Below are positions 1 through 62,128 of a DNA stretch of 64,000 nucleotides, one piece after another. How positions within the stretch are numbered: the stretch's first letter is position 1; each line of letters opens with the position of its first letter. Both the position numbers and the translations under genes were made by a program. The stretch covers positions 434,001 to 498,000 of the forward strand of contig BDIU01000099.1 in assembly GCA_002118135.1 (NCBI GenBank), in the 5' to 3' direction. This stretch comes from Trebouxia sp. TZW2008 (taxonomy: Eukaryota > Chlorophyta > Trebouxiophyceae > Trebouxiales > Trebouxiaceae). A model generated the notes under the pieces. The model saw only the letters and a list, made by a program, of their open reading frames with translations, ran no database searches and was not told the DNA's origin.

Positions 1-3000
1 CTCACACTTGATGCTTGTGGCACATGATATCCTGCTTCTCATGCCTGATGGGTGTTGCAGAGCCTACCCTGTATCTTGGCTGCAATGATTCCATGCACTC
101 GGCTATATGCCTACATTGGATGTCAGCTTAGGGCTGCAGCCTTAGCAGCACCATGTGTAATCAGAGGGGCAGGGCCATATGCATCCTGGATCAAGGAATA
201 CTCTTCTGATGCGTTTCTTGATTTGCCTGCGTCCAAAGAAGCGCTTCTGGACAAGCTTGGGCCTTCTGCTGACTATGGTGAGGTGACTAATTTTCCCTTG
301 CAAAGCAATACCCACAACCAGATGCAGCATCTTTGCGAGCATGCATTCTGGTAAAGCTTGCTTATGCATATTGATGCCTGGAGTCACGGCGAACAATCAT
401 GTTCGAACCCTGCTTGCCGCACGCCGAATGAATGCTGAGATCTGGTCAAACCTTCACAAAAGTCGCATCAAGGGAATCTGAGTTTAGCTTATGCATACCT
501 CGTTTTGTGACATTGAGCTGCACCATTTTGCCGCAGCGTTGACCCAGATGCGGCACGATCTTGTCCACGCGTGTGGCAGAATACACCATCTTGTGCTTGT
601 GAAGGAGCAGACGTGACTAGACCACGACCCGTCGGCTGCTATGCTACTCTTGCGTTTGTAGGCATGCCGTCTTTGTCGCGCGACGCGCATGCATTCCGCC
701 GTCATCCGCCAATGCGTTCCACATGTACGAGCTTGCTGTTCCAATCGACATCAGGCAGCTCTTCGGCAATGTCGACACGTTCGTCAGTGTCGACCTGGGC
801 GCCAGGGCTGGCACATGCATGGCAATCAGCAGAACAAAATGTACCTGTATTTGACAAGACAAGGTGATCATCAACAAGCTTGCTGCCTCAAACGTCCAGT
901 GTGTTGTTGTTCCAAGCCTACTCTGAAGCAAATGCTGTGAGCAGGTACTCTGCAGCAGCTCTACGGGAAAGCCATGCAGATGGAAGTGGATTTTTTCAGT
1001 GCACAGCCAGACACAAATCCTCCTTCAGCTGTCAGGCTGCTGGTGGTGGACTTTGATGACACCTGCACTGCATCTGATACCACCTCCAAGGTCTTTGACA
1101 CAGCTATAGCAGCTACTGTTGAGAGCGCTCCTGGTAAGCACGTGATCACACACTGGGTGGCCGCATAGCTGCTGTGCTCAATGCACGAACTGGCGCTTGT
1201 TGTTCCCTTGGCACAAGCAGCTTCAAATCAAACACAGCATATGTATGCCTTCCGAATTATAACAGCTGCACGACCTCATTGTGCATGCCTAATGACATTG
1301 TTTTGTCTGACTTCCAACGGTTGGGTATTAGATGCCTGCGTTCTGACTCAAGACAAGCCCGCCTGACAAGACAGGACTCGTGCCAAATGCATCTCGCATT
1401 GTATGCTAGAAAGTGTAGTGACTGTTATCATGATGAATGCAGATGGCAAACAAGATGACATGCAGCAGCAACTGCAAAGCAAGAAGCAAGACTTGGTAGA
1501 AAACTATATACGAGAACAGCAGAAGCTGTATGCTGAGATCTTGCCTGAGGTGCGCTACTGACTGTCAAGTGCTCCAAGGCTGCATGCTAACTTGAATGCT
1601 GAAACTGATTTGAAGCTGCTGCTAACACTTGCTATATCTTGACCATGGGTCCTAAGGCCCACAACCATTGTGGAGGTGTCTGACAATGATGAAGTGCATG
1701 CATAAACAAACTGCGTTCAGCCTGGCCTTGCTGCATCTGCACCCATTTTCATTTAGTAGACCCTTGTCCGTGGCCAGGTTTTGCTTCTTTTGCAGCTTGT
1801 TTATCTACTGTTGGTGTAGTTATATACATACATGCTTATAGTGCACCCATGCAGAGCATGTACAATCATGTACAATGCAAGCTGTTGTACAGCAAGCTAC
1901 TCAGCATCATGTTTGTAAGCTCTGCTGCACCGTCAGACCAGTCAGCTCTTCTCACTACCTGTGGTGAACGTTACAACTGAAAAACAAGCCTTTGTATGAA
2001 CACTGTCCCAAGCTGTACCAGCGCACATCAGCATGTGTGCCCAATCTTACCTTACATTGACACAGAGCATCTGAAATGCCTCAGCACTGCTAACAGCAGT
2101 AGGCTCAAGAGTTGCTACACCTTTGCAGGCCACATTGCATGCTGATGTGGTGGACCAGCAAAAAGCCAAGGCCTTCGTGGACTCCCTCACAAGCTTTGAC
2201 CGCCGCATGAACCAAGTGGTGGTTGAGTCAGGCATCCTCAAAGGCGTTCCTGAGGGCCGATTGAGAAGTGCTGGTGAGCCTGTCAGCACACAGCTCCTTC
2301 TTGTATGTACTGCTGCTTGTCGTGTGTACAACTACTTCCTGTATGTACACTGTAGAAAGTTTCTGAGGGCAACTGAGAGCCGACATTTAGCTTGTCTTAC
2401 ATAAATTCTCCTTCTTGTCTGTCTTGAAACATTCAGCAGCGCTGCAATCAGGTTAAAGACTGCGTTGATAGTGAAACAATGACGGAGCGTAAGCTTGAGG
2501 CTGCAGTGCATGAAGCATAGTTTGCATATGCAGTCGTCCCTTTCAATAAGTGTCTGAACAAATCTGTATTATGCCAGGTGAGCAAATTGGGCTACAGGCC
2601 AATTGCCTCGTTGCATTGGCCAGAGCATAACAGGCCGCAGTCCCCACGCATGTCATCAACACACATAATCATGGTCTATCATGTTGTTGCTGGTATGGTG
2701 CTGTTCAAGACTTTTCTGACACAAGTTTGTTCTGCCAAGTGAGCAGATTGGGCTGCAGGTTAATTGCCTCAGTGTATTGGCCAGAGCATAACAGGCTGCA
2801 GTTCCGCCCCATGTTGTCTTTGTCATTTCGACACAAACAATTATGGTGCAATGAATTGTTGCTGGCGTGATGCTGTTCAACAGATTTCTGAAATGCTTTT
2901 GTTATGCTAATTGAGCAAATTGGGCTGCAAGCTGGTTGCCTCGGTATATTGAAGAGAACACAACATGCTGAAGTCTCCGCCCATGCTGCCTCTATTGACT

Positions 3001-6000
3001 ATGTGCGCAAATGTGGTCCTATGCAAATTTGCTGAAGCCATGCTGTTCTGTGAATGTCACAAATGGATTCGTTATGCCAGGTGAACAGATTGGGTTGCAA
3101 GCAGGTTGCCTCAGTGTCTTGGCCAGAGCGCAACAGGCTGGGGTGCCCACCCATGTGGTCTCTGTCAATTACTCAACACAGATGGTGATTGCGGCACTGC
3201 AGCGGGGCAACCTCAACATTGTATCTGCGTAAGCCTTGCAGCCATTCCTTAAGAAAACCCACAGCATCAAGATGTTGGATGATGATTTATGATGCAGTGC
3301 ATGAGTATGCACGCAAAGCTTGCGGCTTGCATTAGTGACCGTTTCTTTGTGGATTCCAATCTAGTGTCATGCTGTGTGAAATGTGATGTCAGTCACAGGA
3401 CATCCAAATGCATGTGAACATTGATCAGCACAACAACCAGCTACGTGACTGATGCACAGTTGTTCCTGGCCAAACGACTAGCCAGGCTAGAAATTGCCAC
3501 ACGAGCTTTTGTGCTCAGACCAAGACCAAGCTTTTTTGGCCTTGCAGGTGTGCCTAGGAGCCAGATTTTTGTTCTGCATTTCACTGCTGCACGTGCAACC
3601 CATAAGGAAGGAAGATCTCATTGTGTCCATGCAGGGATGACATTAGTGTTGAAGCCCAGCATGATGTGGTGGTGCATGCAAATGAGCTGGCATATCAAGC
3701 AGGAGTATCTACAGGTGATATCATCAGGTACTGCTGATGCCTTGCCATTGCATCCATCTGTAGCTAGGACCATCAATGAATGATTTTGCTGTTGTGAGAT
3801 TGTTGCTGCCAATGCTGTCAGCTCAACTCGACGATGCTGTGGTCTTGCCACAAACGAGCCAGAACATGTACCTTCTGCCAGAGTCTGCTCAGGCACTGAC
3901 ATCATGTGGCACTTGTGTCAGTGCTTGATATTAGTGTGAACATCAACTTCATTTTAAAGGATTTCCTTGTTTTTAAGGGCATTGTGGAGAGTATGAGCAG
4001 TTCCACCCATAGGAAAAGCTGTATTTACTTCTGTCTGACTGGCAAATACTTCGTGTGAGCAATGACCCATGGATCATAGGTCAACATCAACAATTGTTAG
4101 CTTGGGGGATGCAAGTAATCTCTGTTTGCATGATGTGCACTGAGTTGGTGTCAGCACCACATCAGGAGGCTTTTCATCTGACGACTTCACTGCCAGCGGA
4201 CAGCTGAAAGACATTGTATCTCAGCAGTTGCTGCTACTGCCTTAGCCTATGCTTTCACTGTGACTGAATGATGTCATCACCATGCATGCGCTCATGCACA
4301 ATCATTGCCAAATGCTGCTACTGCTACTGTCAAAGATGCCACGTCACATGCAGGAGGATAGAAGGGGGATCAGACAAAGACAAGCTCATATCTCAACTCC
4401 TGCAGACCACACACATAGCCAGCAGCACAACAGCCGATGGTGAAAGCACATCTGACAGACAATGTGCAACTGCCAATAGCTCTTCGCCTAATGCAACAGC
4501 TGACAGACAATCTCAGTCAACAGCAGCAGCAGTCGGCAGCGCTTTGACTGATGCAACTGCTAGCAGTAGTGGTCAGACTGGTGCAGACCCTAAGCTGGCA
4601 GTGTACATTGGTGACTCCCCATCAGATCTAGCACCCCTGCTGAGGGCTGATGTGGGCATTGTGGTGGGGCAGAACAAGCTGCTGAGGCAGGTTGCAAAGG
4701 CCCTAGGGATCAAACTGAAGCCCCTCACGGCAGGTGAGGTGTTACTACACTTACTCATCATACTTTTGATCACACTTGAGCCAATTAATGAAGCAGGTTG
4801 CAAAGGCCGTTGGAATTAAGCTAAAGCCCCTTACAGCAGGTAATGATTATTTTACTATCAGGCAGATGCTGGGACCTGATGCAAAGATCTTTGGGTTGAA
4901 GCTGATTTGCCTCATAGCGAGATGTCACAAAACCGTATAGGCTGCTGAGGCAGGTTGCAAAGGCCCTCGGGGTCAAGCTGAAGCCCCTTGCACCTCGTAA
5001 CCATTGCTGATTCCTCTGGTTCTTTTCTCCAGCCAAAATTTGAGGTGTTTCTTGTAGGCCATGCTGTTGCCCCTCACAGCAGGTGAGTAGCACTCTAGAC
5101 TGCGTGGCACATGCGATCAGCCTTGTCGGCTGGCTAAAAGATCAAAACCGGTATTTTTCCCCAAGCAATCAAGATGACCATTTGGCTTGACATGCTTGTT
5201 CAGAATCAAGCAAGTTTGTTGAGCAACAATGTTTGCTATTCATGTGCTACCTGAGTGAAAAGAGAACATTGAATTGAAGATCTTTGTTGTTGTCTTTGTG
5301 CTTACCACCGCTCTTGCAAACAAAACAGAGCTGTTGCCCATGGCTCAGACTTTGCACATCAGAGTTGTTGACACGGCCACCTAAATACCTCCCTATACCC
5401 CTATACCCCAACAACTGTTTCCCCTATACCCCTGTACAATTGGGGCACAGGGGGAGCCTTTGCCAGGAGAATCCTTTTGGGAAAAGTGAAGTCCAATCGT
5501 GACAGAGTTTGGTGTACAAGTTGCCAGGGCAGTGTCTGAGCTTGTTCTCTCATTCCTGTATGCACGGCATTGCTGCTATAAGCCTTGCTGCTGTGCAGTC
5601 AGGAGCAAGGGAATGTATTTGGGCAATTGTCCAGATGAGCACGATGCCAATCTCATCTGTTTCATGGGATGTGCTCACATGTGTTTTGGCCTTTGTGCTT
5701 CTGATTCGGTTTTGTACAAAGATTGAAGGTCTGAATGTCTTGTTTCCTCCTTTCTTGATAATTCTCACTCTGGTGTACTATGCCAAGCAAGTGCAACAAT
5801 GCATACCGCTGGACAGACTGCCCTCTACTGAAATTGCCATCATGACTTCTTTGCATGCCCAAAGGCCACATTGGCAACAGCCATTGACAGCTTGCAGCAA
5901 CAGCTGCACCCGTGATCATAACAGTTCTGCATGCCAGTGGACATTTTTGCAACAGCTGACATCAATAGCATGCAGCATCAAGCATCTTTTGCAAGACAGT

Positions 6001-9000
6001 CCATGTCCTTGTCAGATTGCACGTCTCTCACTGAGACGCTTGCAGCATGCTTGATCAATAGCATTGTGTCAGCAGCCGTCATGATCAGGATGCCGCAACA
6101 GCTGAACAGCAGCACGGACCACTCAAGTGTCTCATTAAGGACAGTCCATGATAGTTTCAGATTGCACTGTCAGAGTGGTTTGGCTGATCTGCCAGCATGG
6201 TCAGTAACTGTCATCAGCAGCATGCAGCCACAGCCAAGCAGCAGAACAGATCACTTCAACCTCTTGCTGTAGACAGTCTATCACACTCCAAGACTGCACT
6301 GGTTCAGTGAGGGGTTAGAGTGGTTTGGGTCATCTGCTAGCGTGATGTGGCCAGCTGCTAGCATGGTGTCAGCAGGTTTCATGCAGCAACAGGCAAGCAG
6401 TAGTATAGATCACTTCAGCCTTTTGCTGGGGAGAATGCCTCAGCCTGCACAACTTGCGCTGTGTTGGTGAGATGCTCAAGCAGCGTGCCTGATCAACAGC
6501 ATGGTGTCAGCAGCTGTCATAAGCAGCACGCAGCAACAGTCAAGCAGCAGGTCAGATCATTTCAATCTGTCACTCAAAAGAGTCCGTCACACTTTAAGAG
6601 TGCACTGTTTCAGTGACGGGCTAGAGTGGTTTGGCTCATCTGCTAGCATGATGTGGCCAGCTGCTATCATGAATCTGCTGATGCTCTGTCATGAGACCTG
6701 CTGATGCGGTGTGCCTCAGCCAGATGTGTAGGATTGCTTTCCGACATGAAATAGACCTGGCATGGGCCTTCTAATGCTCTGTCATGGAATCTGCCAAAGG
6801 GCTTGGGCTGTACCATATGGAATTTGGCAAAGTTTTGGACCTTACCATGCATATATGACTGCTTTCTGACACATTCATATTGACCTGTCATGGGCCTGCT
6901 AATGCTCTGTCCTGTGATTTGGCAAAGTTTTGAACCTTACCATGCATGAATGACTGCTTTCTGACCCACCCATAGTGACCTGCCATGAATTTGCTGATGC
7001 CCTGTCATGAGACCTGCTAGTGCTCCTTGTCAGCCATCTGTGTCAACACAAATTTCTTCTTATGAACACACCTGTCGCGTGGAACAGATCACTGCATTCT
7101 GACTGCATTTGCACTTTTGAGCAACAACAGTGAGATGTGTTGACAATGTTGTCGGTAAGCAACGCAGTCGCTACCAAGAGTAATTACTATTCAGTTGGTT
7201 TCTCTTTCTGCAACTGCGCTGATTATTAGGAAGTTTGTCTGTATACCAAGCTGTCCTTACTCAGAGCTACCACTGCAGTCAGAATGTAGCAATTGATTTC
7301 AGCTGCCTTGTCCTTTTACCATGAATGGCCTTGTATCAAACGCTCCTTAACAACAAATTACAGTAATTGCTTTCTACCCCACCAGTCTTGATCTGTCATG
7401 GGGCTGCTGATGCTCTGTCATAGCACCTACTGATGCTCTTGGGCTGAGTCACAGGAATCAATCAACTTCAATTCAGCAATTGATAGACTAAAAGTTGCAG
7501 CTAGCATATTGCGCGCAGGAGACAATTCATTGCACATGAGCCTATGAGCAACACATCTCAATCATGCATAATCTCGCACGCTTGAAAATTGCATATCGCG
7601 AATCCAGTATTGCACATGATGATTCAATGTCGAACTGTACTCACTTTGGTGTTACTTTATGATCCACTTGCTTGTGAGTGTGCGCAGCGCTATCACATGG
7701 AAGGGGTGCATTGTATGAGGCAGAGTCTTTGGCAGCTGTGCGAACGCTGATGCTTCTGACTCAAACAAATGTTCAAAGTTGCTGTCTGACTCAGTCATGT
7801 ATGTGCGTGTGTGTGCAGCTCCAGCACATGGAAGGGGTGAGGAAGGGTCACTGTATGAGGCCGAGTCTTGGGCAGCCATAGGGGCTTTCCTGTTTGGGCC
7901 AGACCCTTCTAGGGCACTCACACCCCACCCCTCTTCTGCCTCAACCCTCGAGAAGAAGAAAAAGGTGTGTTGACTGCTCCTGATGCTGCTGTGATGCATT
8001 ATGAATCGTCCTTGTGATCTCCTTTTCCTGACCCCTCCCCTGATCGGCCCTGACTCCACTAAAGCTCTCACACTCCACCTCTCTGCCAGATCAAGCCTGG
8101 AGACGAAAAATATGTCAGGGTGTTTTGTCTGCTTAACTATCGCCAGGACGTATTCTGTATATCCTGCACATTTTCTCAGGGCTTCTTGTTTGGGCCTGAC
8201 ACCTCTGTAGCCATCAAAACCCATCCCTCACCCTTGGAAATTGATTGGCTGGCAAGTTGTGTTGGCTGCATATGACATTGTTGAAGGGCATTTTGCACTG
8301 TGCACCTGTGAAACAATTTGTGATTTGATGTGATTTGTGCGTTTTGACCTGCAATAGTGGGGTCTTCAGTGCAGGTACTCAGGGTGATGACAGTGGCTGG
8401 GTCAGACTCAGGAGGTGAGACAGGCATTCAGGCAGATCTGAAGACCCATCAGGCCAGAACACCCCAGGGATCAGCTGTCAAAGGATTTTCATTTTATGCC
8501 TGTCCACCTTCTATAGGAAATTCTTTGAATGCAGGTGCCCAGGGTAATGACAGTGGCTGGGTCAGATTCAGGAGGTGGTGCAGGCATCCAGGCAGACCTA
8601 AAGACCTATCAGGCTAGGGGTGTCTTTGGCATGTCAGCCATCTCAGCACTGACTGCCCAGAACACCAGGGGGGTCAGAGGGGTCCACACCGTACCCACTT
8701 CTCACCTATCGGACCAGATGGAGGCTGTGCTGACGGACATTGGGGCAGATGTAGTCAAGACAGGCATGCTTCCCACGGCTGAGGTGAGCTGCTCATTTCA
8801 TCAATAGTGACTGCTCACAACACCGGGGGGGGGGGGGGTTCCAAGGGGGGTGAAANNAAACACGGGGGGGGGGGGGGTTCCAAGGGGGTTGACATAGTAA
8901 CCCCCAACCCCCTCCCAACTGTCAGATCAGATGGAGGCCGTGTTGTCAGACACTGTGGCAGATGTCATCAAGACAAGCATGCTACCTACGGCTGAGGTGA

Positions 9001-12000
9001 GCTTTTGGTGTCATGCATAGCAACACTGCTGTCATCACTGATATCACTCGACACTGATGACGCAAAGTGCGTTGCATAGTTGATCTGTGACATGATGTTT
9101 CTTGGGGCACATGTGATCAAGATAGCGTACAGCAGGGGCAAGTTGACAAAGTCTCAACGAAAATATTATTGGCCTTGCCAAGCCTGTTTGTGACACGCTA
9201 CCTTGGGACTTGAAAATCAGGGTCTGCATGCAAATGTTGTTCCTGAGCTTGCTGTGGACTTGAAAATCAGGGTCTGCATGCAAATGTTGTTCCTGAGCTT
9301 GCTGTGGAGTTTACTGGCAGCAAACATATGGACACACACATGCTTGTCAGATCAGCACAAGCAATTTTGCCTTCATAGTGCATTGGCCATCACACTTCCT
9401 CACCCAGCTCAAATGTACTGACCTGGAATCATGCAGGCAGTCAAGGCAGTTGGGAGATGCTGAGAGGGCGCACAAGGTGTCTACTCTAGTGGTAGACCCA
9501 GTGCTGGTGCCTATTAGTGAGAATTTCTATTCACTGTGTCACACGCTTGCCGTACTGTGTCACACAGGCGGTCAAGGCAGTGGCAGATGCTGTGAGAGCC
9601 CACAAGGTTTCTACTCTGGTGGTAGACCCAGTGCTGGTGGCTACCAGTGGGGACTCCCTAGCAGGCTCTGAGGTGGCTGAAGCCCTGAAGACCCACCTGT
9701 TCCCCCTGGCTACCCTCATCACCCCCAACCTGCCTGAGGCCTCAGCCCTGTTGGGCAGCCGCCATGTAGCAACCCTAGATAGCATGAAACAGGTCAGTGT
9801 TTTCCATTACTGTAACATGTGCAGACGAAAGTCAACAGCGAGAGCCACCTGTTCCCCCTGGCTACCCTCATTACCCCAACCTGCCAGACGTGTCAGCATT
9901 GCTGGGCAGCCGCCATGTTGCCGCCCTGGATAGCAGGAGACAGGCAATCAAATTCTCAGTTCATGCAAGTGATGTGACAATCAACAGCACAAACCAGGTG
10001 ACAATCTTCCAGCAGGGTCGTGAATTGTTGCTAGCAAGCATCTCTTGAACCCTAGACCCTGGACTCACTCACAAGTGGTAGTGACTGTGATGATGATGTC
10101 TATCTTTTGTGCAGTCTGCAAGGGACCCTTACAACTTGCGCAGACTAGGTGCGTGTCAGAAGGGATCACTGCATGCACTTAGCAGCATCATGGCGTCTGG
10201 CTAGCAAGCATGCAAAGGATGATGGTAATGATTGTAATGTTTGTGTCCATCCCTTGTGCAGGCGGCAAAAGATCTTCATAAGCTTGGTCCCAAGTACGTG
10301 CTTGTTAAAGGGGGTCATTTAATCAGCCCTCCGACCACCCCAACTCCAGGGACCCAGGGGTCTGTCAACCATGCGCAACAAGGTCTCGCCACTGCAGCAA
10401 ATCTGGCGTCAGCCAGCACAGCTAATCAGACTTTAGGAAGACGGCATACACCAGACTCAGCACATGAACCTCAGTCAGAGTCAATCTCAGCTACTGCTCA
10501 GGACTCAGCTAGCAAGCCTTCTGATGATGTGTCACAGCCAGAGCTCCATTCTGGCAGCACTGCAGCTGAGCAAGTAGGGAGCGAGTCAATGGAGCCTGTA
10601 GACAACGCAAACACCTCTCAGCTTCACAGGCAAACAGAATCTTCAGGTACGAAGGCTTGTGTCAAAAGCTGTCCAGCCCCTGCATTGAAACTCATTGGGT
10701 TTTGACTCACACCACAGAAAGCACCAAAAAAATCTTAGAACCCTAAATTCTTCAACCTAAACCATTCCCCTATTACAATAAAACTGTTAAAGTTTCTTAG
10801 GGTTTTTCCAACACTTATTGCCCAGAGCCCAATGAATTGTAATGTAGGGCTCGCCTAGTACAATGTTCAATACCACTTGCCAGCTATGCATTGCCTAGCT
10901 GGCAAGTGGTGCTGGATTGACTGATATTTCTGACTTTCATGTCATATGAAGAGATGGGCTTTGAAATCATCTGGCAGCATGCAGGTCAGCTTTCAAGTAC
11001 CTCACTGCAACAGGTAAAATGTACTGTCCTCACAAAAGTAACCCAAGCACTTTGTTGCAGCAGCCTGTTTTTGACCTTGAGCAACAGTTCAAGGCTTCAT
11101 GTGCGGGCCAATGCTTGAATTTCCCTTGTCTATGCATGCACATCATTCTTCAAGCTGTCACGTCTGTGCGTGCAGATGAGGCCACACCCAGTGGTGAGCC
11201 ACAAGAGAAGCAAGAGAGCACTGCACCAGCAGTGGATGTCCTGTTTGATGGCACAGATATGCACGTCCTGGAGTCAAAGCGTATACATACCCACAACACG
11301 CATGGCACAGGTGAGATACCTTACCAACATCACTCTGACATCAGTGCTTGCCACTCCATTGCTGGACACAGCTCAGTCAGTGCAGCAGCAGACATTGCCA
11401 GTAGACAAAGGCCTTTGTTTGCAGAGGTTTTGCAAAATGTGTAGCGATGCCAGCTGATGTACTGCAGCATGTCAGCGCCATTGTCATGTTGCAGGCGTGC
11501 TGAGTGTTGTATGCCGCGCAAAACGCATGTTGTTTTGAGCTGCTATGGGAGCACTAGCAGAGCTATGCAAGACAAGCACCTGTGTGTTGAGAGAAGATGT
11601 ACCCTGGCGTCTGTCATTGGGGCAGAACTAGCCAAAGGGCAGGCACCATCAACCGCAGTGCATCTGCATCTTCCGGCAGGCATGCTCAGACATGTGTTGC
11701 TGTCCAAAACAGATGTTGAGCGCCATTGCAGGATGTACCCTGGCTTCTGCCATAGCGGCAGAGCTAGCAAAAGGGCAGCCGCCCTTAGCAGCAGTGCGCT
11801 TGGCCAAGGGCTGGTTGGGTCAAGCCCTGCAGGCTAGTGCCCCTCTCCAGATCGGCTCAGGACCTCATGGGCCCCTCAATCATGGGTAGGCTTCTGATCT
11901 GCTATGGCTCCCTCCCGCCATGTGTAGGTCCACATGTTGTCTCCTTCTCAGGTTGTCTGTGTACAGCTAAGCTCTCTAGGCTCACAACAGATCTGAGCTG

Positions 12001-19986: not shown

Positions 19987-20026
<40 letters not shown>

Positions 20027-34566: not shown

Positions 34567-42328
<7,762 letters not shown>

Positions 42329-49526: not shown

Positions 49527-52500
49527 TTACAGCAGCAAAGGTGCTGGGTAAGCGTTTGGGAAGTCTGGGTTGCCAGTTGGTGTAAATGCCCAGAAGGATG
49601 TTTGCACATCAACTGGTACTGGCATTGAGCCATTGGCCAGATCATACCCTGCACAATGACACCAAGGCTTTGTCAAATGCTCTAGGCAAACATGAGACAG
49701 AGGTATGTTTCTGCACTTACAGACACTGGCACCGAATCATTTGCCAGGTCATAGCCTACACAAGCATACAAACAGTTTGTGTGTTGGCTGCATGATTAAT
49801 CAGTGTTGTCTGCACGGACAATAAGCGTTTGTGCAGTCTCTGCATGGACACCAATCTATTGTATAGAGCTTGTGGGTGGGGGAAAAAAAACACAAGAAGT
49901 CTACGCCGTCAGGCGTGTTTGAGAGGCCTCAGATAGACTGTGGCGCGCCTTGCGAGCTTGTCATGTCTGCATGGACATCAACAGTATGTCTGCATGAACG
50001 TCAACAGTATGTCTGCATGGAGAAGAGTGAAAGCAGGCAGAGGCATGACAAAGCAAACTGAGCACAGCAAATGCTGCTGTAATGCACAATGTGCATAGCC
50101 TGCAGAGATGTAGGCATGGTTGTTTCACCAACACAAGCTTGCAACTGCATATGCTGAGAGCACTGCATGTGTACTAGTCTTGTGTATTTTGCTCACTCTG
50201 TCCTTAGTTGATGCAAGAGGAGCTGTGTGCACACATAGGCAGGCTTTCAATATGCATCCTGTCAATATGCAGGCAACAGCTAGGGTCGACTACGGGGAAA
50301 AAGTTGCAGGAGACATGCAGGAGCATTCATGCAGCAGGCCCCAATGGCTGCATCAGCCAGCAAGAAGTTGCAGCTATGCTCTTCCATGTTAACATCTTCT
50401 CTTGGCAGTCCAGCCATTGCTGTCATGAACACAGTTTTCAGCAGGCTCGGCAGGAGTTGGACCACAGATACCTTGTACTTGTGCAGGCACGTAGAACATC
50501 TGCAATGACATGACTATGATTATGATTGTTATACACCTCTTTCAGCACAGCAAGATCTGCTACCTGATCCCTGGTACAGGACGCTGTTCACAATGGAAGG
50601 CCCGTTCTGCACAAGGGTGTTGTTCAGGGTCACCGCATTCAAAATGGTCCCATCTGTGGTGTTGAGGGCAAATAGCGATGCATCCAGGCTGCCAGCATAC
50701 GTGCTTGTTGCACCAAACAGCACTCCATTTGCCAATGTAAGTTGACCCTGCATCAGCTCAGAAGCTTCACGCTTTGGAGCATGCGTGTTCCGAAGCTTTG
50801 CTACTTTGTGATGCATTGCTCCAACAGGACTTTGCCTGTTGCAGCAGCAAAGGCCGCCCACAAGCCATGCAGTGTTGTGTTGGAACTACCATCTCACAGG
50901 CAACAGAACTGCTCAAGTCTCAGGAAACCGCCAGCATTACATTCAGCTCTCACCGCCACAGAGGGGCTCAGAGCGCACTGAAAAAACTTGTGCATTTCAC
51001 TGAACAGCAGCAAATGGCACCTGGCTCCATCCCACAGGACAGGAAACTTGCAGAAGTCACACATAAAGTGCAAAATGACGTGTAGGTCTCACTGCCAAAG
51101 CACTGATGAGAGGGCTGGAGGGTTCTTGCAGGATTCTGCTGGTTGCAGCATTCAAGGCCGCCCACAAGACGTGTGAAGCGGTTTTGGGATTGCTAGCACA
51201 TAGGCAGCGGCATTGCAGAGCCCTTACACAATAGCTGACACGTCTTGCAGGTGATGCTGCAATCACACAAACAATGGTCTTACCGCCATGGAGCTGCTGA
51301 GAGGGCTAGGAGTTTCCCACAGGATTCTACCAGTCGCAGCATCCAAGGCCGCCCACAGACCATGCAGTGTGGTATTGGGGCTGCCAGGACTAGGTTCAAG
51401 GACTGGAGCTGGTGATGATCTGCATATGCAAAGGAGCTGTCAGAAACTTGAAGTTAAATGAGAGTGATGACTGCAGTGTTCAACGTCACCCATAGCCTAT
51501 GCAATGTGGTGTTGGGACTGCCGGCACTAGATTCAAGGACTGGAGCTGGTGAGCATCTGCTCAAGCAAAAGAGATTGGTAAGGTCCATTTGAGCAGTGAC
51601 AGCGTAACAGCATGCATGGTTGCACCCTTTGTTTTCCTTGCACAACAGATGGCCGTCTGTGATGAGCCTGCTGTGAAAAGCCAGCTTATCTGTGAAGGAT
51701 TTTGAGCATCACATGCATCAGCAGCTACAGTCGTCCCAATGGCTTGGAAGACTTCTGCATTGACAATGTGCTGTCTTTCAGCATGCGCTTGCTCATGACT
51801 ACAGCCAGCGCCAAAATTGTTGCAAGCCATGTGATACTCGATGACGAAAGTTGATGACACGTAATGTCAGGCATGTACATGAGATGAGAGTCTGAAGGTA
51901 CTTACTCATCAGACCTTGCATTGATGGCTACATACATGCGCTCCCCGTCTGTGGCAGACCCAAACATTGCCCCACCCAGGTACCCCCCAGGGCCTGCAAA
52001 AAGGCACATGTGTGTACATGTCATATTCATGCACGATATAACTAGTCTTCACAAAATAAGCACATGATGTATATTTTCACACTCTTCCAAGCAGGAAGCA
52101 GAGTTGACGTGCCTTTGACAAGCTAGCGGCATGCGATCAAACCTTTGGCAAAGGCATCAGATTGCCTGCTCAAGAACAGGAAAGAAAAGAATTCCTATGC
52201 AGCTGAATGTCATAACAGGCAACTCTGCACACAGAGTCAACCTGAGCCTATCATTCAAGCAGCAGGCCAACACAAGCAAACATGGATGTGCTGCATCACA
52301 GCAAGATGCAGCTATACACAGCAGCACGAAGCAGGCCAACGCTTGCAAACCTGGCATGTGTTGCATCACAGCAAGATGCAGCTATACACAGCAACATGCA
52401 GCGCTGTCGGCACATGAGAGCTTGTGATCAGGTGCTTATGCTTACCTACTGCTGTAGCCCAGACTCTTTCACCAGTCTCTGGGTCAACAGCAAATGCAAA

Positions 52501-55500
52501 GCCTCCCTTGTTGGCAATCAGCAGCAGATCTGAGTCCCTGCATCGGCCAGCACCAATGCTACGAGATCAAGTTACAGATGCAACACCAAGAGCTTGCCCT
52601 AGCATCCATCTGGTGGCGAACAGCACAACTTTGGCCCCGCACCAGCAAGCGCCATTGCTGATTCGACAAGTTTGCGAAAGCCCCGGCGAGAGCTTGAGCC
52701 ATGATACATTTAGCGGCAGCAGCAGATCTGAGCCCCTGAACCACCAGGTGTCAATGTCACTGCAAATGTCTGTGGCAACGGCAAAAGTTTGCTTGTGTGA
52801 CACTGTCATTGCCTTATCGAGCTTGGATGATCTGATGCTCTGTCTTCCCAGCAATGGAACAACATGAAGCTGTTGTTACCCAGCTGATGGTGTATAGTAA
52901 GTTCTCCTGTCAAGCACACCCAATGTAAGGGCATTTTTGACATAAGGCTGATTGGATTGGAGACCAATCACTGCATTCTGGCTGCAGTAGCGCCTCTGAG
53001 TAAAAGCAATTTGAGATAAGGACAATTTTGGGAAGCAAAGCAGTTGTTACAAAGAGAAGTGACTACATTGTTGTGTGCAGGTGCAGCAAGGAGTTGCATT
53101 GGTTGCGAAAGGGCTGCTTGCAAGTGGTCTGAAAAATTTTGGATTCTGGCAGGTCTCGAGAGCAAGGCTTTAGGCGACCTACATTCATGCTGGGATAGTT
53201 GTTGTTTTACTTGCAATCAACTTCAGCTTAAACGCGTGTTCACAAGAGCACTTGCAGTGACGGTATGTATGCCAGCATTGGTGCTTGAGCAAAGTCTGCA
53301 TCTACTTCAGGGCGGGCAGGCAGACAAACGCCACTAGGATGATGGGTAAGCCAAATGCTTGTCTGGAAACTTCAAAGCCCGTACTTTGAGGAAAGCACTC
53401 ACAATGAGGGTATGTATGTCAGCATTGGTGCTTGAGCAAAGTCTGCATCTACCCCGGGGTAGGGGGGACAGCCAGACCCCACCAGGCTGCTGGGCAGACC
53501 CACCCTGCCAAACACCAACTCATCTGGATCACTCAGGTCTACACCAGATGATGGCCTGCAGTGCATAAACATATGTATGTCATCTGCATACATTCTGTGT
53601 CCACTGGCCTGCGTCAGGTATGTATCTACTACATCTGAAGTGCCCAATAAGTGTATAGATAGACAAAAGACTGGTGGCCATTGTGTTGCATGGTTTTGCT
53701 GGATACACGCACCTTGCCAAACAGCAACTTGTTTGGGTCACTAAGGTCTACACCAGATGGTGGCCTGCATCGCAAACTGTCTCAGAAGTTTGCAGTTCAA
53801 AAAGGTTGCGGCTAGAGTTATAAGCTGGGGTTGTTGTGTGTTGAGGAATGATGGGCAACTTGCAGGTGCTGCCAAAGTTGCTGCCATACAAGGGTTTGTG
53901 CAGTCATCAAGTCAAGAGGAACCTAAAAAGTGGCCTAAAGTCCAAAATGCACACAGGGCCATTTGACAAGATCCTCAGCAGTTTGTAACAACACAATTAA
54001 GCAATCTAACAACAGAGCTTACAGGTAAACATCCACTCCAGTCAGGTTGAGTTCTGCCCCTTCAAAGTTTACGCAAGCAAAGGTCCAAGACTCCAGCGGT
54101 CCCAGCTGAACGCTCCAGTTGATGTCACCGGTCTCCAGATCTAGAGCCAAGATGCTGTTGGCCTGCAGAAAGAGAATGCATCATTGATGAAGGCACGCGG
54201 ACAATGAGATTTATGCATGTACAAGGCAGGCACATGAAAGATAGCATTTTGGTAAGGTGTTGTAAGGTCCTAGAACTGCATGCACATTTTTGCCGGCCAT
54301 AGGCAGTTTTGCAGGCGCTGCATTGAGCTCAAGCTATGTACTGTCAGCAACAGCGACAGCCCCAAATGCTGTCAACCTTGTCACGCATTTCTACAATCCT
54401 GTCCGTACGCATTGACTTAAGCAGGGAGTCATGTCTCTGGACACTCTTTTGCCCAAGACTTGAACAGCTGTTTAGCATGCACCAATACACTCAAGCACTA
54501 GTGCATTGAACTTACGTAGTTGTCAGGGAGACCGCACTCATCTGTAGACGTGCTACGCTGCAGCTGGCACTCTGTGTACTCTGAAGGCACCTTGTAGTTG
54601 TTGCCAGTAGCCACATACACCTGCAGGACAATGATGATTGCATAATTGGGCCTGTAATTGATACCCATACTTTGGACATACCAGACCAAACCATATCATA
54701 CACACTGGTGATTGGCAAGCACAAGCCCTGCAGCCTGGTGTCCAGCCCACTTGTAATGATTCCAGCTTGAGAACATGCTGCTCCTTGCTTCTCCTTGGCG
54801 AAAGGCACCGGAACAGCAAACACTGTAATGCTGCAATGCACTGCATGACTGGCCTTGCTGATTGTTTTGCACCTGCTAGTGCAGCGATCTGGCATGGTCT
54901 GAACTGCTGCGTATATAGTGACAACCCAATCATTGAACATGCATAACAGACTGTGTACACATGGCCTGTGGATGTCAAGGCATGTGTGACAGTCTGCAGC
55001 CTAGGCCTTGACTGGTCAATGCTGCAGCGCATTGCTCAGGATGAACCACGCAAGGAAGAGGAATGCTGCCAGCGGCAACTGTGCTTACAAGGAAACACTT
55101 TAACTTAAATTTACAGGCTACCTTCTGAGGTTGTAGACTAGTCTGTTACAGCATGCAATGCATCAATGGTATGTAGTCTCGAGAAGGACAGCACACCTGC
55201 TGCCGCAAAATGTCTATAGGTGTCATGCTGCCCCATACTGCCACTCCAGCATAGCCCTCATCAACTTCAGGCTCCAGAAATGTCTGCCAGTCAATGGAGC
55301 CATCCAGTGTCTGCACACAAGAAGAGCTGTTGTTTTCCTCACAGCGTCAGCCTGTAGCATACAGAGGACCTTGATGTTGTGCTGAACAGCATAGACTGCT
55401 TTGTTGCCTATCTTGCACTTACACACATAAGCTACTGCTGAGAACAGAAGGTCCTGATTCATTGCTTGGCAGCACAGAATGCTTTGCTGCACCATTTTCA

Positions 55501-56926: not shown

Positions 56927-59900
56927 ATGAATGGCGCCCTGCTAAACCGACCAGTGCACGCCTACCTGCGACCATGCCTAGGGCGCGCACCATTCAGACA
57001 AGCCATACGGTGTCCAGTCGCCTCGCACAGACCTCGTTCAAGGCTACAGCGAGTATGTCCGTGCGCCACTGCCACTACGGAAGATGTCGAGGAGGTGCAA
57101 GAGAGCTCCAACGCGGGAAGGAAGGTCTCTCCGAACCCTGGCGAACTCATGAGCTGGGAGCAAATCGGGGAAAGTGCAGGCACAGATGTCCTCAAAGGCT
57201 ATCAGTTGTTGGATCAGTCTCCTAACGTGGGGCAACCCAGGACGGCTCCTACTCGTGTGCTGCCTGCGGAGGAGTCAACAACTACAGACAAGCCAGTTTT
57301 GCTGTATAGAGATACCAATGCTTGGTGCCCATTCTGCGAGCGGGTGTGTGCTATATATCACTTGCAAGCATGTACTCTCTGTATCTATCTAAATACGCAT
57401 GCCAGTTAGGCTCAAAGGCTTTGCTAGGTATAGTCACCAAGCAACTGCCTCTGAGCAATCCAGGTTTCCCTTTGAGCAACCCTTTGAGGCGACATGTTTG
57501 CTATGCTACAGTCCCCACTGCCTGCTGATGCGATGCAATCAAAGGCTGGTGTGTTTCTCACTTGTACTTTGTCTACTCACCGACACAAAATACAATGAAC
57601 GAAGCAAATAAAGCAGATATGACAAGCACTGCAGTGCCTGCCTGCAGGTCTGGTTTGCCTTGGAAGAAAAAAACATATCTTACGATACAGTGTTGATAAA
57701 TCTGCAAGACAAGCCAGAATGGTACAAAACCATGATCCCCACACAGTTAGTGCCTGCAGCCAAAATCAATGGCAAGCTGGTATATGAGTCGTATGACATC
57801 ATGATGGTATAGTTCAATCTGCAATGTTTGATAATTCATTTAGGATTCCATGCTTGAGACCCTTCTGCTTGCTGTGCTACGAGTCACAGAGAAGTATTGC
57901 TTTTCACTTCGCGTTTTGTGCTGTGGCTGATTCTGCTTTTGACCAAGATGGAGCAGCAGAGCTGATACATGCGCAACATTGCTATCAAATGCACCTCGCT
58001 GAGCTGGTTTGCTTTGCTTGAGCAGTGCCAATGTTATGCTGACTTTTCTTTCACATCACAGCCATTTTTTTGCAAGCTGCTTCTGCTTACAGATGCTTGT
58101 TTGATAATGTCTGAAGGCCTGTTGAGCATGCAAATTGATTGCTGCTTTGTTCCACCTCAGCGTCGTAAACTGTTGCTACAGGAGCTTGAGAGCCAGTTTC
58201 CAGAGCCACCATTGTTGCCCAGCAATTCAGATCTGCGTGAGGAAGTGGAGGAGGTGTGCAAGCAAGCCTCAGGTAGCTGACTCATTTGCCGTCTGCAATC
58301 TTGCATCTTTCAATTATCTCTGCTGCAAGCAGGCGCCAGTCCCTCGCGCCCACCTCAACTAAAAGGCTGTCACCATAGTTGCAACATGAAATAGAAAGTG
58401 CAGCCACACACTGCGCAGCGTGGCTTGCCCAGGCTTTTGCTGCGTTTGCTGATATTGCAGAGATGGTTCAGGGGCTGCAGTCATATGTTTCATAATTGAG
58501 CATCTTTCAATGGCAACAGCACCATGGCAGGCTGGTGTTGAGACACGCGCAGGATGCTCACTCATTTGTTCTTTGCTTAATACACTGAATTGCACTAGAT
58601 ATTCAGCAGTTCTGGCAACTGTGCATGCAGCGTCGGAATGCTGCCAGGGCAAAATACATATTTCATGTCAGACATCAAGAAGGCTTAAGATGGTGAGACT
58701 GGCAAAAGTCTACTGCAGTCTGGGATCCTGCCGTGGTACCTCAACTTGATGTATGGACTGACTCTGTGCTTTGCTTGGGCCCTGGAGGGTTCCGTCTGTC
58801 GCAAGCATTATTGCATTCAATGCTGACATTTCATGCTGACCAGCTTGTATGCCAATGCATGCCTGTTGTAGCAGACGTGCAGGTGTTGCAAAATACAGGT
58901 CAGGCTGTTGTGCACACCTCTTACAAACAATTCAGTCACACATGAGTACAGAAGAAAAGCAAGAATGGGCTGCTCCATCCAGTTTCTCAAGTGGCGTGAC
59001 GTTTGCGGAAGGCTACATGCCCTCTGCTGTCAACTGCCAGACACATCAGAAGAGTCAACTTGGGCGCCCTGAAGCATGCTGCCCAAGCGCAAACAAGCTT
59101 CTCTTGTATGGCTGCAGAGGTTTCTTCTGCAAGCACCTGGCCAGCAGAATGAAAAATTGAGAAAACCCAGCTGATGAGCAGAGAGCGCAACACGCTCATG
59201 AGCTTCTGTGCCTGAGGTTCTGTTTCGTGCGTGCAGATGTGTCATCTGCTGGCTACAAGTATCTAGCAGAATGAGCTGTCGAGAAAATCTCAATGGTGAA
59301 CAAAGTGTGCAAGACGCCTTTTCCAAGTACGCATTAGCTTTTGTTGCCTGTGAGTCTGTTTCATGTTTGCAGAAGTCTCATCTGTTGGGCACAAGTACCT
59401 GGCCAGCAGAATGAAGAACAAGCAGAACCCAGATGATGAGTAGAGTGCGCAAGATACCTTCTCAACATGCTCATGAGCTTGTGTTGCCTGAGCTTCTGTT
59501 TCAGGTGTTCAGAGGTCTTGCCTGTACGTTTGCGAATGTTTGTACTTACCTGCAGATGTGTCATCTGCTGGGTACAAATACCTGGCAAGCAGAATGAAGA
59601 ATAAGGAAAACCCAGATGATGAGCAGAGTGCGCAAGACGCCTTCTTGCTGCAGCTGGATAGCATGGAGAACCAGCTGGGCAAACATTCTGGCCCCTACAT
59701 GATTGGGTAAGTCCAGCAGACATTGTCCACTGTTCTGCAATGGAGCGTTTTGCAGCTAACATGTCCAAAGTAGCTGGTCTTGGAGTTTGATTCTGGTGAC
59801 ACTCAAACGCACTGCTTTGGGGCAGGGACTTGAGTCTGTTTCTGGTAACAGTCAGCTTCAGACTCACGGTGCTAATACTCTGCGGGACTTCAGTCAGCCT

Positions 59901-62128
59901 GCAGACATTGTGCTTTGTTCTGCAACTGAGCGCTTTGAAGTCGACATGGCTCCAAGTCACACTTCCTGTGCTGTGGCGCACGGAATTCAGTCTGGCAGAC
60001 ATTGTACACTGTTCTGCCATCGAGCGCTTTGCAGCTAACATGCCCAAAGGGGCCTTGTGTTGACCTGAATCTGGTCATCTGAATCACCTGCTGCGTGGCA
60101 TTCAAGTTATTGTGCTTGTGCCGTGGTGCAGGGACTTCAGTCTGGCAGACATTGTACCTTGTTCTGCTATGGAACGCTTTGCAGCCAACATGCCCAGGGT
60201 AGCCAGCCTGCAGCTGAAGGGTCACACATCACATTTGTTGTATCAGGTTTAGACTGGCCTTAGCACGCCTTTCTCAATATTTGGACTTGACATCCCAGTG
60301 TGAATGCTGTGTAGGGACTGCAGTCTGGCAGACATCGTTCATTGTTCTGCCATGGAGCGCTTTGCCGCCAACGTGCTCAAGGTAGCTGGCCTGCAGCTGA
60401 AGGGCCACATTCGGCACCCAAAATCATGGTGTCGGTGCTTGGCACAGATACTTCTGATGACAGTCAGCCTCAGACTCATGGTTCTAGTGCTGTGGTGCAG
60501 GGATTTTAGTCTGGCAGATATTGTACACTGTTCTGCAATGGAGCGATTTGCGGCCAACATGCCCAAGGTAGCTGGCCTGCAACTGAAGGGCCACACACGC
60601 TACCCCAACATCTCCCGATGGTACAGCGTTATGGACTCAAGACCAGCATATCAGAAGGTCAAGAGTGATGACACCACACTGAATCTGGTCATCAGGTACG
60701 CAGCAGGATGTGAAAAGCAGCACTGACAGGATTTGAACATTGAGGTGTTGACTTGATAGTCAATCCAGCATCACCAGGCAATGCACTCCTGACAAGCATG
60801 GTAGACTGCGCTGTGCTCATTGCATGGTTGCATGCGCTGTGCTGCACCCTCTGGAAGCACACGGAACTGTATCAGCGCTGGCAAGATTGATATGGACAGC
60901 ACGACCTGATGCCTGTGTGACTGTTTGCAGGAAAAGTGTGTGGTAGCCCAATCGCGTATGCTCCGCCTGTGACTGCTTTTGACAGCACAGGACAATGCCT
61001 AGGGCTGTCAGGACAATATGGACAGGACAATCTGATGGACGTCTTTCTTGTACTGCAGGAAGGTGTTTGGCATTCCAATGGCATATGCTCCACCCGTGAC
61101 TGCCTTCGTGCAGCTGGGCAGGAAGGAGGCAGCAGCCAAACTCAGCAGCAACAAGGATGTTGTGCGAGCAGGTATGAAGCTGCCTGGACCCATCATGCTG
61201 CTGCCGATGCTGTAGTCCATGTAAGGCATGACTCCATACTTTTCATGCTGCTGGCAAAACAATCAAAAAGCTGCTTGTCGTACGGCTGAGAGCCATTATG
61301 CTGCTGGCAGAACAATACAAAACCTGCAATAATGAGCTGCTGCTGGGCTGCAGACATTGTGAGGCGCAGTGGAGTTTTGCGCGGCCATGACAGCACCACT
61401 GGCAGTTCTAATGGCTCTGACCAGGCCACATCAGTGCCTCAAGGCGTGCAAGACGCAGTTGACCATGCCATGCGACGACTAGCCAACTACCTCTTGACAG
61501 GTATGAACAGATCATACAGCTGAATGTGGATCGTCACAATGTACTGAAGGTACTATTTGAGTAATGATTCTGTAGTAATTCATGGCACAAACGGCTCCAA
61601 CGGCTCTGACCAAGCCACATCAGTGCCTCAAGGTGTACAGGATGCAGTTGAAAATGCCATGAGACGGCTAGCCAACTATCTGTTGACCGGTATAGATATG
61701 TCTTTTAGTTGCACTAGGCTTTGCTTTACTGCGCTGAACACAGAGCAAATTGCAAAAATTGGTGAAATTTGTTCAGCATGTCTGCCAGATGTCACGCTTC
61801 ACGGCACACAGGGTTTAGTACTTTGTCACAACTGCATGTAGAGTGGTTGTCAAGCTTGCAGTTATGCAAATGAATCCCACAGCATGTGATTGAACTGGTG
61901 ACAGCCTGTGTGGAAGTTTATCAGCTAAGCTAACAAAGTATCAAGCCTTAGTTCTCCTGAGTTGCAGGCGAACCTGGGCCAAGGCATGAAGAAGCTGAAG
62001 CACGGGCCATTGGCGCTGCTGGAATGGCATATTTTGCTAACAGGGCCTCAGCACCTCGAGATTTGTCTGCCAATGCTTGCAATGAACTTCGAGAAGCATG
62101 CTTAGCAGTTGTGAGAGATTCATATTGA
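56927..62128 (+). CDS. Glutathione S-transferase, plastid-targeted, with C-terminal extension
   Basis: Exons 56927-57343, 57648-57806, 58182-58272, 59556-59706, 60501-60695, 61059-61171, 61354-61500, 61968-62128; 477 residues, all phases match. An Arg/Ala-rich leader of about 60 residues suggests a transit peptide. The GST N-domain has LLYRDTNAWCPFCERVWFAL with a Cys-Pro-Phe-Cys site and the substrate-side QLVPAAKINGKLVYES with its cis-Pro. The C-domain has GPYMIGGDFSLADIVHCSAM and NISRWYSVMDSRPAYQ. The CPFC site is like omega/lambda-type or glutaredoxin-like GSTs, which act in thiol transfer and dehydroascorbate reduction rather than conjugation. The last 130 residues (KVFGIPMAYAPPVTAF, VQDAVDHAMRRLANYLLTG) form an extension beyond the usual GST fold. 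The exon used at each array is the only complete one. Confidence 0.85.
59100..59500 (+). repeat. Three upstream copies of GST exon 4
   Basis: Before exon 59556-59706 lie copies at about 59117-59200, 59235-59330 and 59369-59470, spaced 120-185 bp. Each begins with a form of tgcagatgtgtcatctgctg and contains ctggccagcagaatgaa. Each also has stops or indels, such as aaaaattgagaaaacccag and gatgatgagtagagtgcgc. Confidence 0.9.
59710..60420 (+). repeat. About five upstream copies of GST exon 5
   Basis: Copies of the first 60-100 bp of exon 60501-60695 (DFSLADIVHCSAMERFAANM) lie at about 59710, 59887, 59990, 60130 and 60314. The true one starts at 60501. The period is 100-190 bp. The 60130 and 60314 copies stay open through GLQLKGH-like sequence, keep gcag-like acceptors, and include gggtagcc or aaggtagc at the internal position. 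The earlier ones are more decayed. Confidence 0.92.
60925..61000 (+). repeat. Upstream copy of GST exon 6
   Basis: tttgcaggaaaagtgtgtgg followed by atcgcgtatgctccgcctgt copies the start of exon 61059-61171 (RKVFGIPMAYAPPVTAF). It carries an inserted base that shifts the frame before IAYAPPVTAF. The spacing is about 120 bp. Confidence 0.88.
61560..61700 (+). repeat. Downstream copy of GST exon 7
   Basis: This repeats most of exon 61354-61500. It reads NGSDQATSVPQGVQDAVENA then MRRLANYLLTG and ends with a donor-like ccggtatag. It stays open and in the same phase, differing from the true exon at only a few residues. It lacks the acceptor-side part (DIVRRSGVLRGHDS). Confidence 0.9.

What the first reader, a model, noticed from the sequence alone, without database searches (positions are those of the whole stretch)
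2560..61700. Genome-wide habit of exon-border tandem copies filling introns
Six of the nine genes (thiamin fusion, methyltransferase, malic enzyme, Nudix, PQQ, GST) have at least one exon accompanied by 1 to 6 partial copies in the adjoining intron. The unit is usually 100-190 bp, takes in intron plus one edge of the exon, and normally leaves exactly one intact in-phase exon. Copies of the exon start lie upstream and copies of its end lie downstream, as tandem duplication with breakpoints inside exons would give. The range from near-identical (45512, 61600) to barely visible copies suggests a continuing process rather than one event. I do not know a description of such density. It may reflect a replication or repair bias, or a splicing-linked mechanism.
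Basis: seen in the sequence. Interest (0 to 1): 0.9.

Follow-up and report, generated by a model that had tools for sequence, protein, structure and literature searches.

The report
Algal genome full of ~146-bp duplications
The nuclear DNA of this green alga, probably a relative of lichen algae, is littered with small head-to-tail duplications of roughly 100-200 bases; some cut across exon borders and leave dead exon fragments in introns, which points to a continuing copying error rather than anything aimed at exons.

Summary
The copies are real: 72 of 97 repeat pairs in the window are direct and within 1 kb. In two genes mapped with related proteins, 12 of 27 exons overlap a copy. The malic-enzyme gene still reads through 12 GT-AG exons, and a 95%-identical relative contains none of the copies.

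The exon-border "habit" fails testing: copies cover 16 of 54 exon edges, 19.7 expected. Unit lengths are alike in these genes and elsewhere, and 19 of 20 other 10-kb nuclear pieces hold arrays.

The striking part is unit size. Of 121 arrays in 264 kb, 82 have units of 100-219 bp (median 146) and only 4 are longer, though longer units are no harder to detect. The peak is the same at every identity level; 81 of 83 arrays have sequence private to their site.

I infer a continuing tandem-duplication process on the scale of one nucleosome or Okazaki fragment; copies at exon borders are tolerated and decay. The mechanism is not shown, and no other eukaryotic genome could be compared.

The parts
2542..3187 (+). 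array of about 161-bp units: three upstream partial copies (2577-2660, 2741-2824, 2913-3002) of the start of thiamin-gene exon 3081-3227
4678..5005 (+). copies of the end of thiamin exon 4523-4733 at 4779-4838 and 4939-5001
5949..7451 (+). tandem array inside the long intron between thiamin exons 4523-4733 and 7819-7937; no exon mapped in it
7673..8229 (+). copies at lags 131 and 150 around thiamin exon 7819-7937
8334..9038 (+). exon 8535-8783 (phosphomethylpyrimidine kinase): start copy upstream (8369-8458, lag 159) and end copy downstream (8910-8999, lag about 204)
9429..9952 (+). exon 9568-9792 with an upstream start copy (9450-9518) and a downstream end copy (9840-9952), lag about 131-151
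10076..10317 (+). copy at lag 147 overlapping the start of exon 10262 onwards (exon end uncertain)
11596..11797 (+). upstream copy (11598-11663) of the start of exon 11732-11885, lag 136
14633..16058 (+). array around exon 15549-15786 (TMP synthase): four upstream copies of the exon start, one downstream copy of the end
16458..16748 (+). intronic two-copy tandem, unit 153 bp
31820..32506 (-). array of 156-182-bp units overlapping an exon match of the LCM methyltransferase gene; a search of the whole genome with 31909-32410 returned only this array
34885..42325 (+). malic-enzyme gene, 12 exons (34885-34968, 35048-35167, 35343-35504, 35729-35843, 36113-36267, 37380-37520, 38021-38176, 38556-38720, 39261-39423, 40838-40925, 41715-41870, 42142-42325), one open frame; a further exon lies upstream
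36161..36999 (+). end of exon 36113-36267 and five partial pieces of it downstream; includes a direct/inverted/direct piece at 36631-36805 with the palindrome CCCATGTACATGGG
37707..38081 (+). start of exon 38021-38176 with two short upstream copies and a doubtful third
39064..39937 (+). exon 39261-39423: one upstream start copy (about 39090-39144) and three downstream end copies (about 39496-39579, 39706-39795, 39838-39921), each ending in a GT like the true donor
41416..41789 (+). two upstream copies of the start of exon 41715-41870
45282..45629 (.). tandem copies, lags 126 and 167 bp (no exon mapped here)
45966..46673 (.). 67-bp-unit array merged with lags 133-388
50820..51573 (.). array of about 137-bp units
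53247..53774 (.). two neighbouring duplications, units 147 and 209 bp
59096..60608 (.). arrays of about 119-186-bp units
61407..61693 (.). 98-bp copies at lag 189 (86% identical)

Best explanation
Shown on a 264-kb sample: this nuclear genome (a trebouxiophyte green alga, probably Trebouxiales) carries local head-to-tail duplication arrays at about 0.46 per kb. Most units are 100-219 bp (median 146). Copies are mostly direct, mostly private to their site and of all ages, and lie in introns, across exon borders and elsewhere. In the two genes tested, exon edges are hit at the rate expected by chance; one intact exon chain is kept and the extra exon pieces decay. Inferred: a continuing mutational process copies about one nucleosome or Okazaki-fragment length twice, whatever the sequence. 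Duplications straddling an exon edge are nearly neutral because the untouched exon with its own splice sites can still be used; those inside an exon should be purged; deletion and substitution erase the rest. Existing duplications grow into arrays by slippage or unequal exchange. My preferred molecular route, inferred only, is a lagging-strand or flap template switch that re-copies one Okazaki unit.
For: Unit size: 82 of 121 arrays at 100-219 bp and 4 of 121 at 220 bp or more, though simulated detection at 220-300 bp is as good as or better than at 150 bp; the peak at 140-159 bp appears in all three identity classes. Direct copies in 168 of 660 400-bp bins, inverted in 10. Private sequence: 81 of 83 arrays have no match elsewhere in the sample; two arrays searched against the whole genome returned only themselves. 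Beyond the window: 19 of 20 sampled 10-kb nuclear pieces hold at least one array of any unit size, and 18 of 20 one of 100-219 bp at the stricter 34/40 threshold. Overlapping exon matches, read by eye, also occur in unrelated genes found by family search: an XPG-type exon three times at C57:178778-179254 (6 matches listed), Helicase_C pieces on C44, C352 and C100 (112 matches), an AAA piece on C328 (25 matches, 19 of 180 candidates scored). No exon targeting: 16 of 54 edges against 19.7 expected. Decay: over 27 of 29 exon-copy alignments (1,955 bp) mismatches are 92/74/173 by codon position and 20 of 26 gaps shift the frame. Two of the nine arrays displayed have clean young junctions: match of about 153 bp at lag 153 and about 52 bp at lag 50, so about 0-2 bp of microhomology (read by eye). 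Template switching is visible in one array: a direct/inverted/direct piece at 36631-36805 with a 14-bp palindrome. Precedent: FEN1-associated small inverted triplications average 148/160/148 bp, and in yeast their breakpoints lie at nucleosome midpoints and Okazaki termini; tandem duplications also rise in the rad27 mutant (PMC13334657; passages, including part of the abstract, and section 2.5).
Against: The molecular step is not shown. Unit lengths have no periodicity between 9 and 12 bp. Exons resembling FEN1, EXO1, XPG and the Ku domain are present, so I have no missing repair gene to point to. Only two junctions were clean enough for microhomology. Thirty-five of 121 arrays have units under 100 bp, and short old units are detected less well, so the lower edge of the hump is softer than the upper. 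Third codon positions carry somewhat more of the mismatches than my hand-made neutral expectation, so some copies may have been used for a time. Exon coverage is below intron coverage with all pairs, but slightly above it, not significantly, with pairs of 75% identity or more, so purging inside exons is not shown. In the malic gene 12 of 13 repeat pairs touch an exon. The piece-by-piece density is uneven: L020 has no array and L003 none at the stricter threshold. The sample pieces were chosen by contig number, not at random. No other eukaryotic genome was available, so how unusual this is remains untested.
Confidence: 0.62

Rival explanations
1. Break repair rather than replication: staggered breaks or paired nicks with long overhangs are filled in (CST / Pol alpha-primase) and joined by end joining, giving tandem duplications about the length of the overhang.
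For: Described for small tandem duplications in mouse and human cells, with less microhomology than the Pol theta route (PMC8355091, passages). The two clean junctions here have about 0-2 bp. Ku-domain exons are present.
Against: It does not by itself set a unit of about 146 bp with an upper bound near 200 bp, nor explain the palindrome-associated inverted piece. In the passages read the designed overhangs were about 43-50 bp.
Confidence: 0.25
2. Ordinary background: every genome makes such duplications, and they are merely easier to see here because introns are long and deletion is slow.
For: Internal gene duplications are called commonly observed (Gao & Lynch 2009 as cited in PMC4974935, passages). 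No eukaryotic comparison could be made here.
Against: The hump with an upper cut-off near 200 bp, its constancy across identity classes and about one array per 2 kb are not what I would expect of a background of mixed sizes; this expectation is from general knowledge, not from a call.
Confidence: 0.2
3. Exon- or splicing-directed mechanism.
For: Many conspicuous copies include an exon edge: 28 of 47 repeat pairs in the two genes touch an exon.
Against: Exon edges 16 of 54 covered against 19.7 by chance; arrays of the same unit size outside the annotated genes.
Confidence: 0.04
4. The copies are functional tandem alternative exons.
For: Some copies keep a donor GT or acceptor AG; third-position excess among mismatches.
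Against: The copies examined are partial and 20 of 26 gaps shift the frame; relatives 95% and 89% identical carry the single exon chain only.
Confidence: 0.04
5. A dispersed element (introner, MITE or satellite monomer of about 150 bp) inserted many times.
For: The unit size would fit an element; a dispersed repeat of about 140 bp does exist in the window.
Against: 81 of 83 arrays have no match elsewhere in the sample; whole-genome searches with two arrays return only the array itself (the tool skips very common words).
Confidence: 0.02
6. Assembly artefact.
For: Two N bases inside one repeat-rich stretch near 8.86 kb.
Against: Copies differ by about 4-40% and carry their own indels; arrays occur on 15 of 15 sampled nuclear contigs, 14 of 15 for units of 100-219 bp at the stricter threshold.
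Confidence: 0.02

Closest known systems
Small tandem duplications as a mutation class (CST / Pol alpha-primase fill-in; PMC8355091, passages read)
   Same: head-to-tail, local, little microhomology
   Different: here one size class dominates and has accumulated through a genome over evolutionary time; cause unknown
FEN1-associated small inverted triplications in yeast and cancers (PMC13334657, passages and section 2.5 read)
   Same: unit of about 148 bp; one inverted piece with a palindrome is seen inside an array here
   Different: here nearly all copies are direct; FEN1-like exons are present; no mutant is known
[quoted passage not shown] potato RdRp; ATP2A1, Hellsten 2011; all from passages of PMC4974935)
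   Same: tandem duplication next to splice sites; the protein is preserved because one copy is spliced around
   Different: here units run across an exon edge into existing intron; no new intron was demonstrated
Published Trebouxia genomes (PMC11523091, PMC12712428; passages read)
   Same: 63-74 Mb, GC 49.6-51%, repeats 9-16%, with a large unclassified share
   Different: the word search found 'tandem' 0 times in either main text, and nothing of this kind in the passages shown

Membership tests
Local tandem duplication | copies head to tail, same orientation, adjacent | tested here: met
   168 of 660 bins direct against 10 inverted; in the two clean junctions the match length is about the lag
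Local tandem duplication | units made from whatever sequence lies at the site | tested here: met
   81 of 83 arrays private in the sample
Exon-directed or splicing-linked duplication | exon edges hit more often than chance | tested here: not met
   16 of 54 against 19.7 expected, p 0.86, two genes
Intron gain by tandem duplication | duplicated segment is exonic and carries AGGT | tested here: inconclusive
   the units examined run across an exon edge into intron; AGGT was not tested separately
Intron gain by tandem duplication | intron absent from relatives | not testable with these tools
   only protein sequences of relatives were available
Tandem alternative exons | copies complete and in frame | tested here: not met
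   partial copies, 20 of 26 gaps frameshift
Introner elements or satellites | shared sequence at many sites | tested here: not met
FEN1-type small inverted triplication | duplication / inverted / duplication with about 148-bp units | tested here: inconclusive
   one direct/inverted/direct piece at 36631-36805, segments of about 50-65 bp, palindrome present
Okazaki- or nucleosome-unit duplication | breakpoints at nucleosome dyads or Okazaki termini | not testable with these tools
   needs MNase or Okazaki-fragment mapping; size agreement only, no 9-12-bp periodicity

The most novel reading that the evidence does not exclude
This alga has a constitutive mutation process that copies one Okazaki or nucleosome unit twice, so that much of its intron and other noncoding DNA was built from duplications of about 146 bp; the genome is a natural, long-running equivalent of the FEN1-defective duplication phenotype and drives intron growth by duplicating exon-intron borders.
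Probability: 0.3. Interest if true: 0.85.

Novelty: new variant of a known kind. Interest (0 to 1): 0.6.

Why it matters
Short tandem duplications are a common kind of insertion whose molecular origin is still argued over (general knowledge). A genome that makes them all the time, in one size class, preserved at every age, would let the link between duplication length and nucleosome or Okazaki-fragment length be tested directly. It would also give a concrete neutral route by which introns lengthen and by which exon-like decoys with splice sites arise. It is a practical warning for gene prediction in such algae, because exon copies that keep splice-site dinucleotides sit in introns.

Tried and rejected
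Exon targeting was tested by rotating the copy footprint 5,000 times along the two mapped genes, at four identity cut-offs (none, 70, 75, 80%): no significant enrichment at any (edge p 0.86, 0.87, 0.38, 0.63). Periodicity of unit lengths between 9 and 12 bp: none. Unit length as a multiple of three: remainders 0, 1, 2 in 28, 28 and 32 of 88. Loss of FEN1 as cause: FEN1-like exons are present on C110, so rejected as stated; whether the gene works was not tested. The codon-usage self-training gene finder was too weak to annotate exons and was not used. Identifying the organism by rRNA (family RF01960) did not complete. The Rfam scan of the window gave 0 matches.

Rows dropped before counts: L005 (GC-poor, two tRNAs, many inverted repeats) and L011 (298 bases) from all samples; the overlapping loci L001, L002 were dropped throughout, and L027, L028 where they existed. 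One search includes L025 and L026, fetched for a gene; searches do not. Low-complexity matches were filtered out of the event counts. Two of 29 exon-copy alignments shorter than 40 bases were left out of the codon-position count. Thiamin exon edges are good to about 10 bp only and were set by eye. Overlapping exon matches were picked out by eye. The organism label rests on named relatives that disagree: Trebouxia for the thiamin gene, Asterochloris and [Myrmecia] bisecta (70 and 69%) for malic enzyme, where the only Trebouxia protein noticed is 58% and may be another gene copy.

Literature: ten searches; no listed title or abstract start described such arrays in Trebouxia or other green algae. 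Word searches of two Trebouxia papers, the Asterochloris paper and one Chlamydomonas paper showed none in the passages returned. Gao & Lynch 2009 is not held. Most subscription journals are missing from the library, so absence is weak evidence.


Full report
What was checked. The window is G000:C96:434001-498000 of a 68.5-Mb, 527-contig genome. Self-BLASTN gives 97 repeat pairs: 72 direct and within 1 kb, 8 direct and farther, 17 inverted. I mapped two multi-exon genes. The malic-enzyme gene has 12 mapped exons with AG/GT borders and one open frame. Its closest database relative is 95% identical over the whole query and comes from a contig of 4,004 bases, shorter than the gene's 7.4 kb here, so probably a transcript; it contains the exon chain and none of the copies. 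The other is a thiamin gene joining phosphomethylpyrimidine kinase and TMP synthase, with an upstream part that relatives annotate as HAD-like.

Organism. The best named relatives of the thiamin protein are Trebouxia sp. C0004 and C0006. For malic enzyme they are Asterochloris (70%) and [Myrmecia] bisecta (69%); a Trebouxia protein there is only 58% and may be another gene copy. Genome size and GC (window 48.5%) are close to published Trebouxia assemblies (63-74 Mb, 49.6-51%; passages of PMC11523091 and PMC12712428). It is a trebouxiophyte green alga, probably of the Trebouxiales; the genus is an inference, and no rRNA was recovered.

The copies. In these two genes 12 of 27 exons overlap a local repeat. 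I aligned 29 exon copies; 27 were at least 40 bases (1,955 bases together). Their mismatches fall 92, 74 and 173 on codon positions 1, 2 and 3, and 20 of 26 gaps shift the frame. A decaying copy compared with a constrained exon should show roughly 28, 27 and 45% (my own hand estimate); observed are 27, 22 and 51%. The copies are therefore mostly dead, with room for some having been used for a while.

Not about exons. If duplication were drawn to exon borders, borders should be covered more often than other positions. Rotating the copy footprint along each gene gives 19.7 covered edges on average; 16 of 54 are observed (p 0.86). With pairs of at least 70, 75 and 80% identity p is 0.87, 0.38 and 0.63. 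With all pairs, exon sequence is covered less than intron sequence (0.34 against 0.46 in the thiamin gene, 0.22 against 0.29 in malic); with pairs of 75% or more it is covered slightly more (0.12 against 0.10, 0.15 against 0.12), not significantly, so neither purging nor targeting is shown by coverage. Repeat pairs touching an exon number 16 of 34 in the thiamin gene and 12 of 13 in malic; rotation shows that units of about 150 bp among dense exon edges overlap this easily.

Beyond the window. I took 20 nuclear 10-kb stretches from 15 contigs, chosen by contig number. Nineteen of 20 hold at least one array of any unit size; 18 of 20 hold one of 100-219 bp at the stricter 34/40 threshold, L003 and L020 being the exceptions. 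With the window, 264 kb contain 121 arrays. In the window only one event, of 57-bp units, lies between about 18 and 31.8 kb. Family searches of the whole genome show the same anatomy in unrelated genes: an XPG-type exon on C57 matches three times within 480 bases at spacings of 155 and 172 (6 matches listed); Helicase_C pieces overlap in profile on C44, C352 and C100 among 112 matches; an AAA piece on C328 among 25 matches, only 19 of 180 candidates having been scored. These overlaps were read by eye.

Unit size. The lag spectrum has a hump between 100 and about 200 bp. As separate arrays, 82 of 121 have units of 100-219 bp, 35 are shorter and 4 longer; within 80-220 bp the median is 146 and the quartiles 129 and 167. 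Simulated duplications are detected at least as well at 220-300 bp as at 150 bp, so the upper limit is real in this sample; short old units are under-detected, so the lower limit is less certain. The peak stays at 140-159 bp in high, middle and low identity classes, so the process seems to have kept its size over time. Unit sizes in the two annotated genes (18 arrays) and in the rest (65) do not differ (medians 150.5 and 146). Eighty-one of 83 arrays have no relative elsewhere in the sample, and two arrays searched against the whole genome match only themselves, which speaks against an element family.

Mechanism. Shown: direct, local, mostly site-private, recurrent, of a fixed size scale, with about 0-2 bp of microhomology in the two of nine displayed arrays whose junctions could be read. 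Inferred: the size equals one nucleosome core or one Okazaki fragment. Small inverted triplications tied to FEN1 average 148/160/148 bp; in yeast their breakpoints follow nucleosome midpoints and Okazaki termini, and tandem duplications also increase in the rad27 mutant (PMC13334657; passages, including part of the abstract, and section 2.5). One array here contains a direct/inverted/direct piece (36631-36805) with a 14-base palindrome; that paper's model invokes palindromic junctions. Thirteen of the 14 local inverted pairs in the sample touch direct arrays, but 11 of those come from a single array at 12.3-14.2 kb. Against a simple loss of repair: exons like those of FEN1, EXO1, XPG and the Ku domain are present. 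Fill-in of staggered breaks is a live rival (PMC8355091, passages). The absence of 9-12-bp periodicity neither helps nor excludes the nucleosome idea.

Selection and decay. A duplication straddling an exon edge leaves one exon intact and a second splice-site-bearing fragment beside it; the protein survives if the intact exon is spliced. The malic gene shows this outcome at four exons. Duplications wholly inside exons would usually break the frame and are expected to be lost; this was not shown. Thirty-eight of 88 arrays in the hump span at least 2.5 units, so duplications are extended further.

Limits. No other eukaryotic genome was available, so I cannot say how far this departs from other algae; that comparison is the first thing to do. 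The sample is 264 kb of 68.5 Mb and was not random. Only two genes were annotated well enough for the exon test.

Noticed in passing
window 36631-36805: Direct/inverted/direct rearrangement inside the malic array, with the perfect palindrome CCCATGTACATGGG at 36737 (also at 36214 and 36507); resembles a template switch.
   Followed up: partly
window 12289-14214: Array of about 396-bp units whose parts also match each other in inverted orientation; unlike the other arrays.
   Followed up: no
window 7080-7353, 16884-17053, 33107-33257, 52896-53065: A dispersed repeat of about 140 bp in both orientations, MITE- or SINE-like.
   Followed up: no
window 943-18460: Thiamin gene fusing phosphomethylpyrimidine kinase and TMP synthase with an upstream part; related fusions of similar length appear in other green algae in the search listing.
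   Followed up: partly
window about 18000-31800: A stretch of nearly 14 kb with only one short-unit local duplication, containing a 459-codon open frame with an MFS match (25535-26911); younger or foreign DNA is possible.
   Followed up: no
L005 (C27:20001-30000): GC 41.5%, many direct and inverted repeats, tRNA-Thr(GGT) and tRNA-Glu(TTC): probably organelle (plastid) DNA in the assembly; 7 events there, units 22-223 bp.
   Followed up: partly
G000:C57:178778-179254: An XPG-type exon present three times in tandem, with stop codons in two of the three matches.
   Followed up: no
Asterochloris genome paper PMC6652019 (passage): Reports arrays of duplicated 141-bp units at the scaffold ends of a virus-like low-GC region in a related alga; whether this is connected is unknown.
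   Followed up: no
window near 8857: Two N bases inside a repeat-rich stretch.
   Followed up: no
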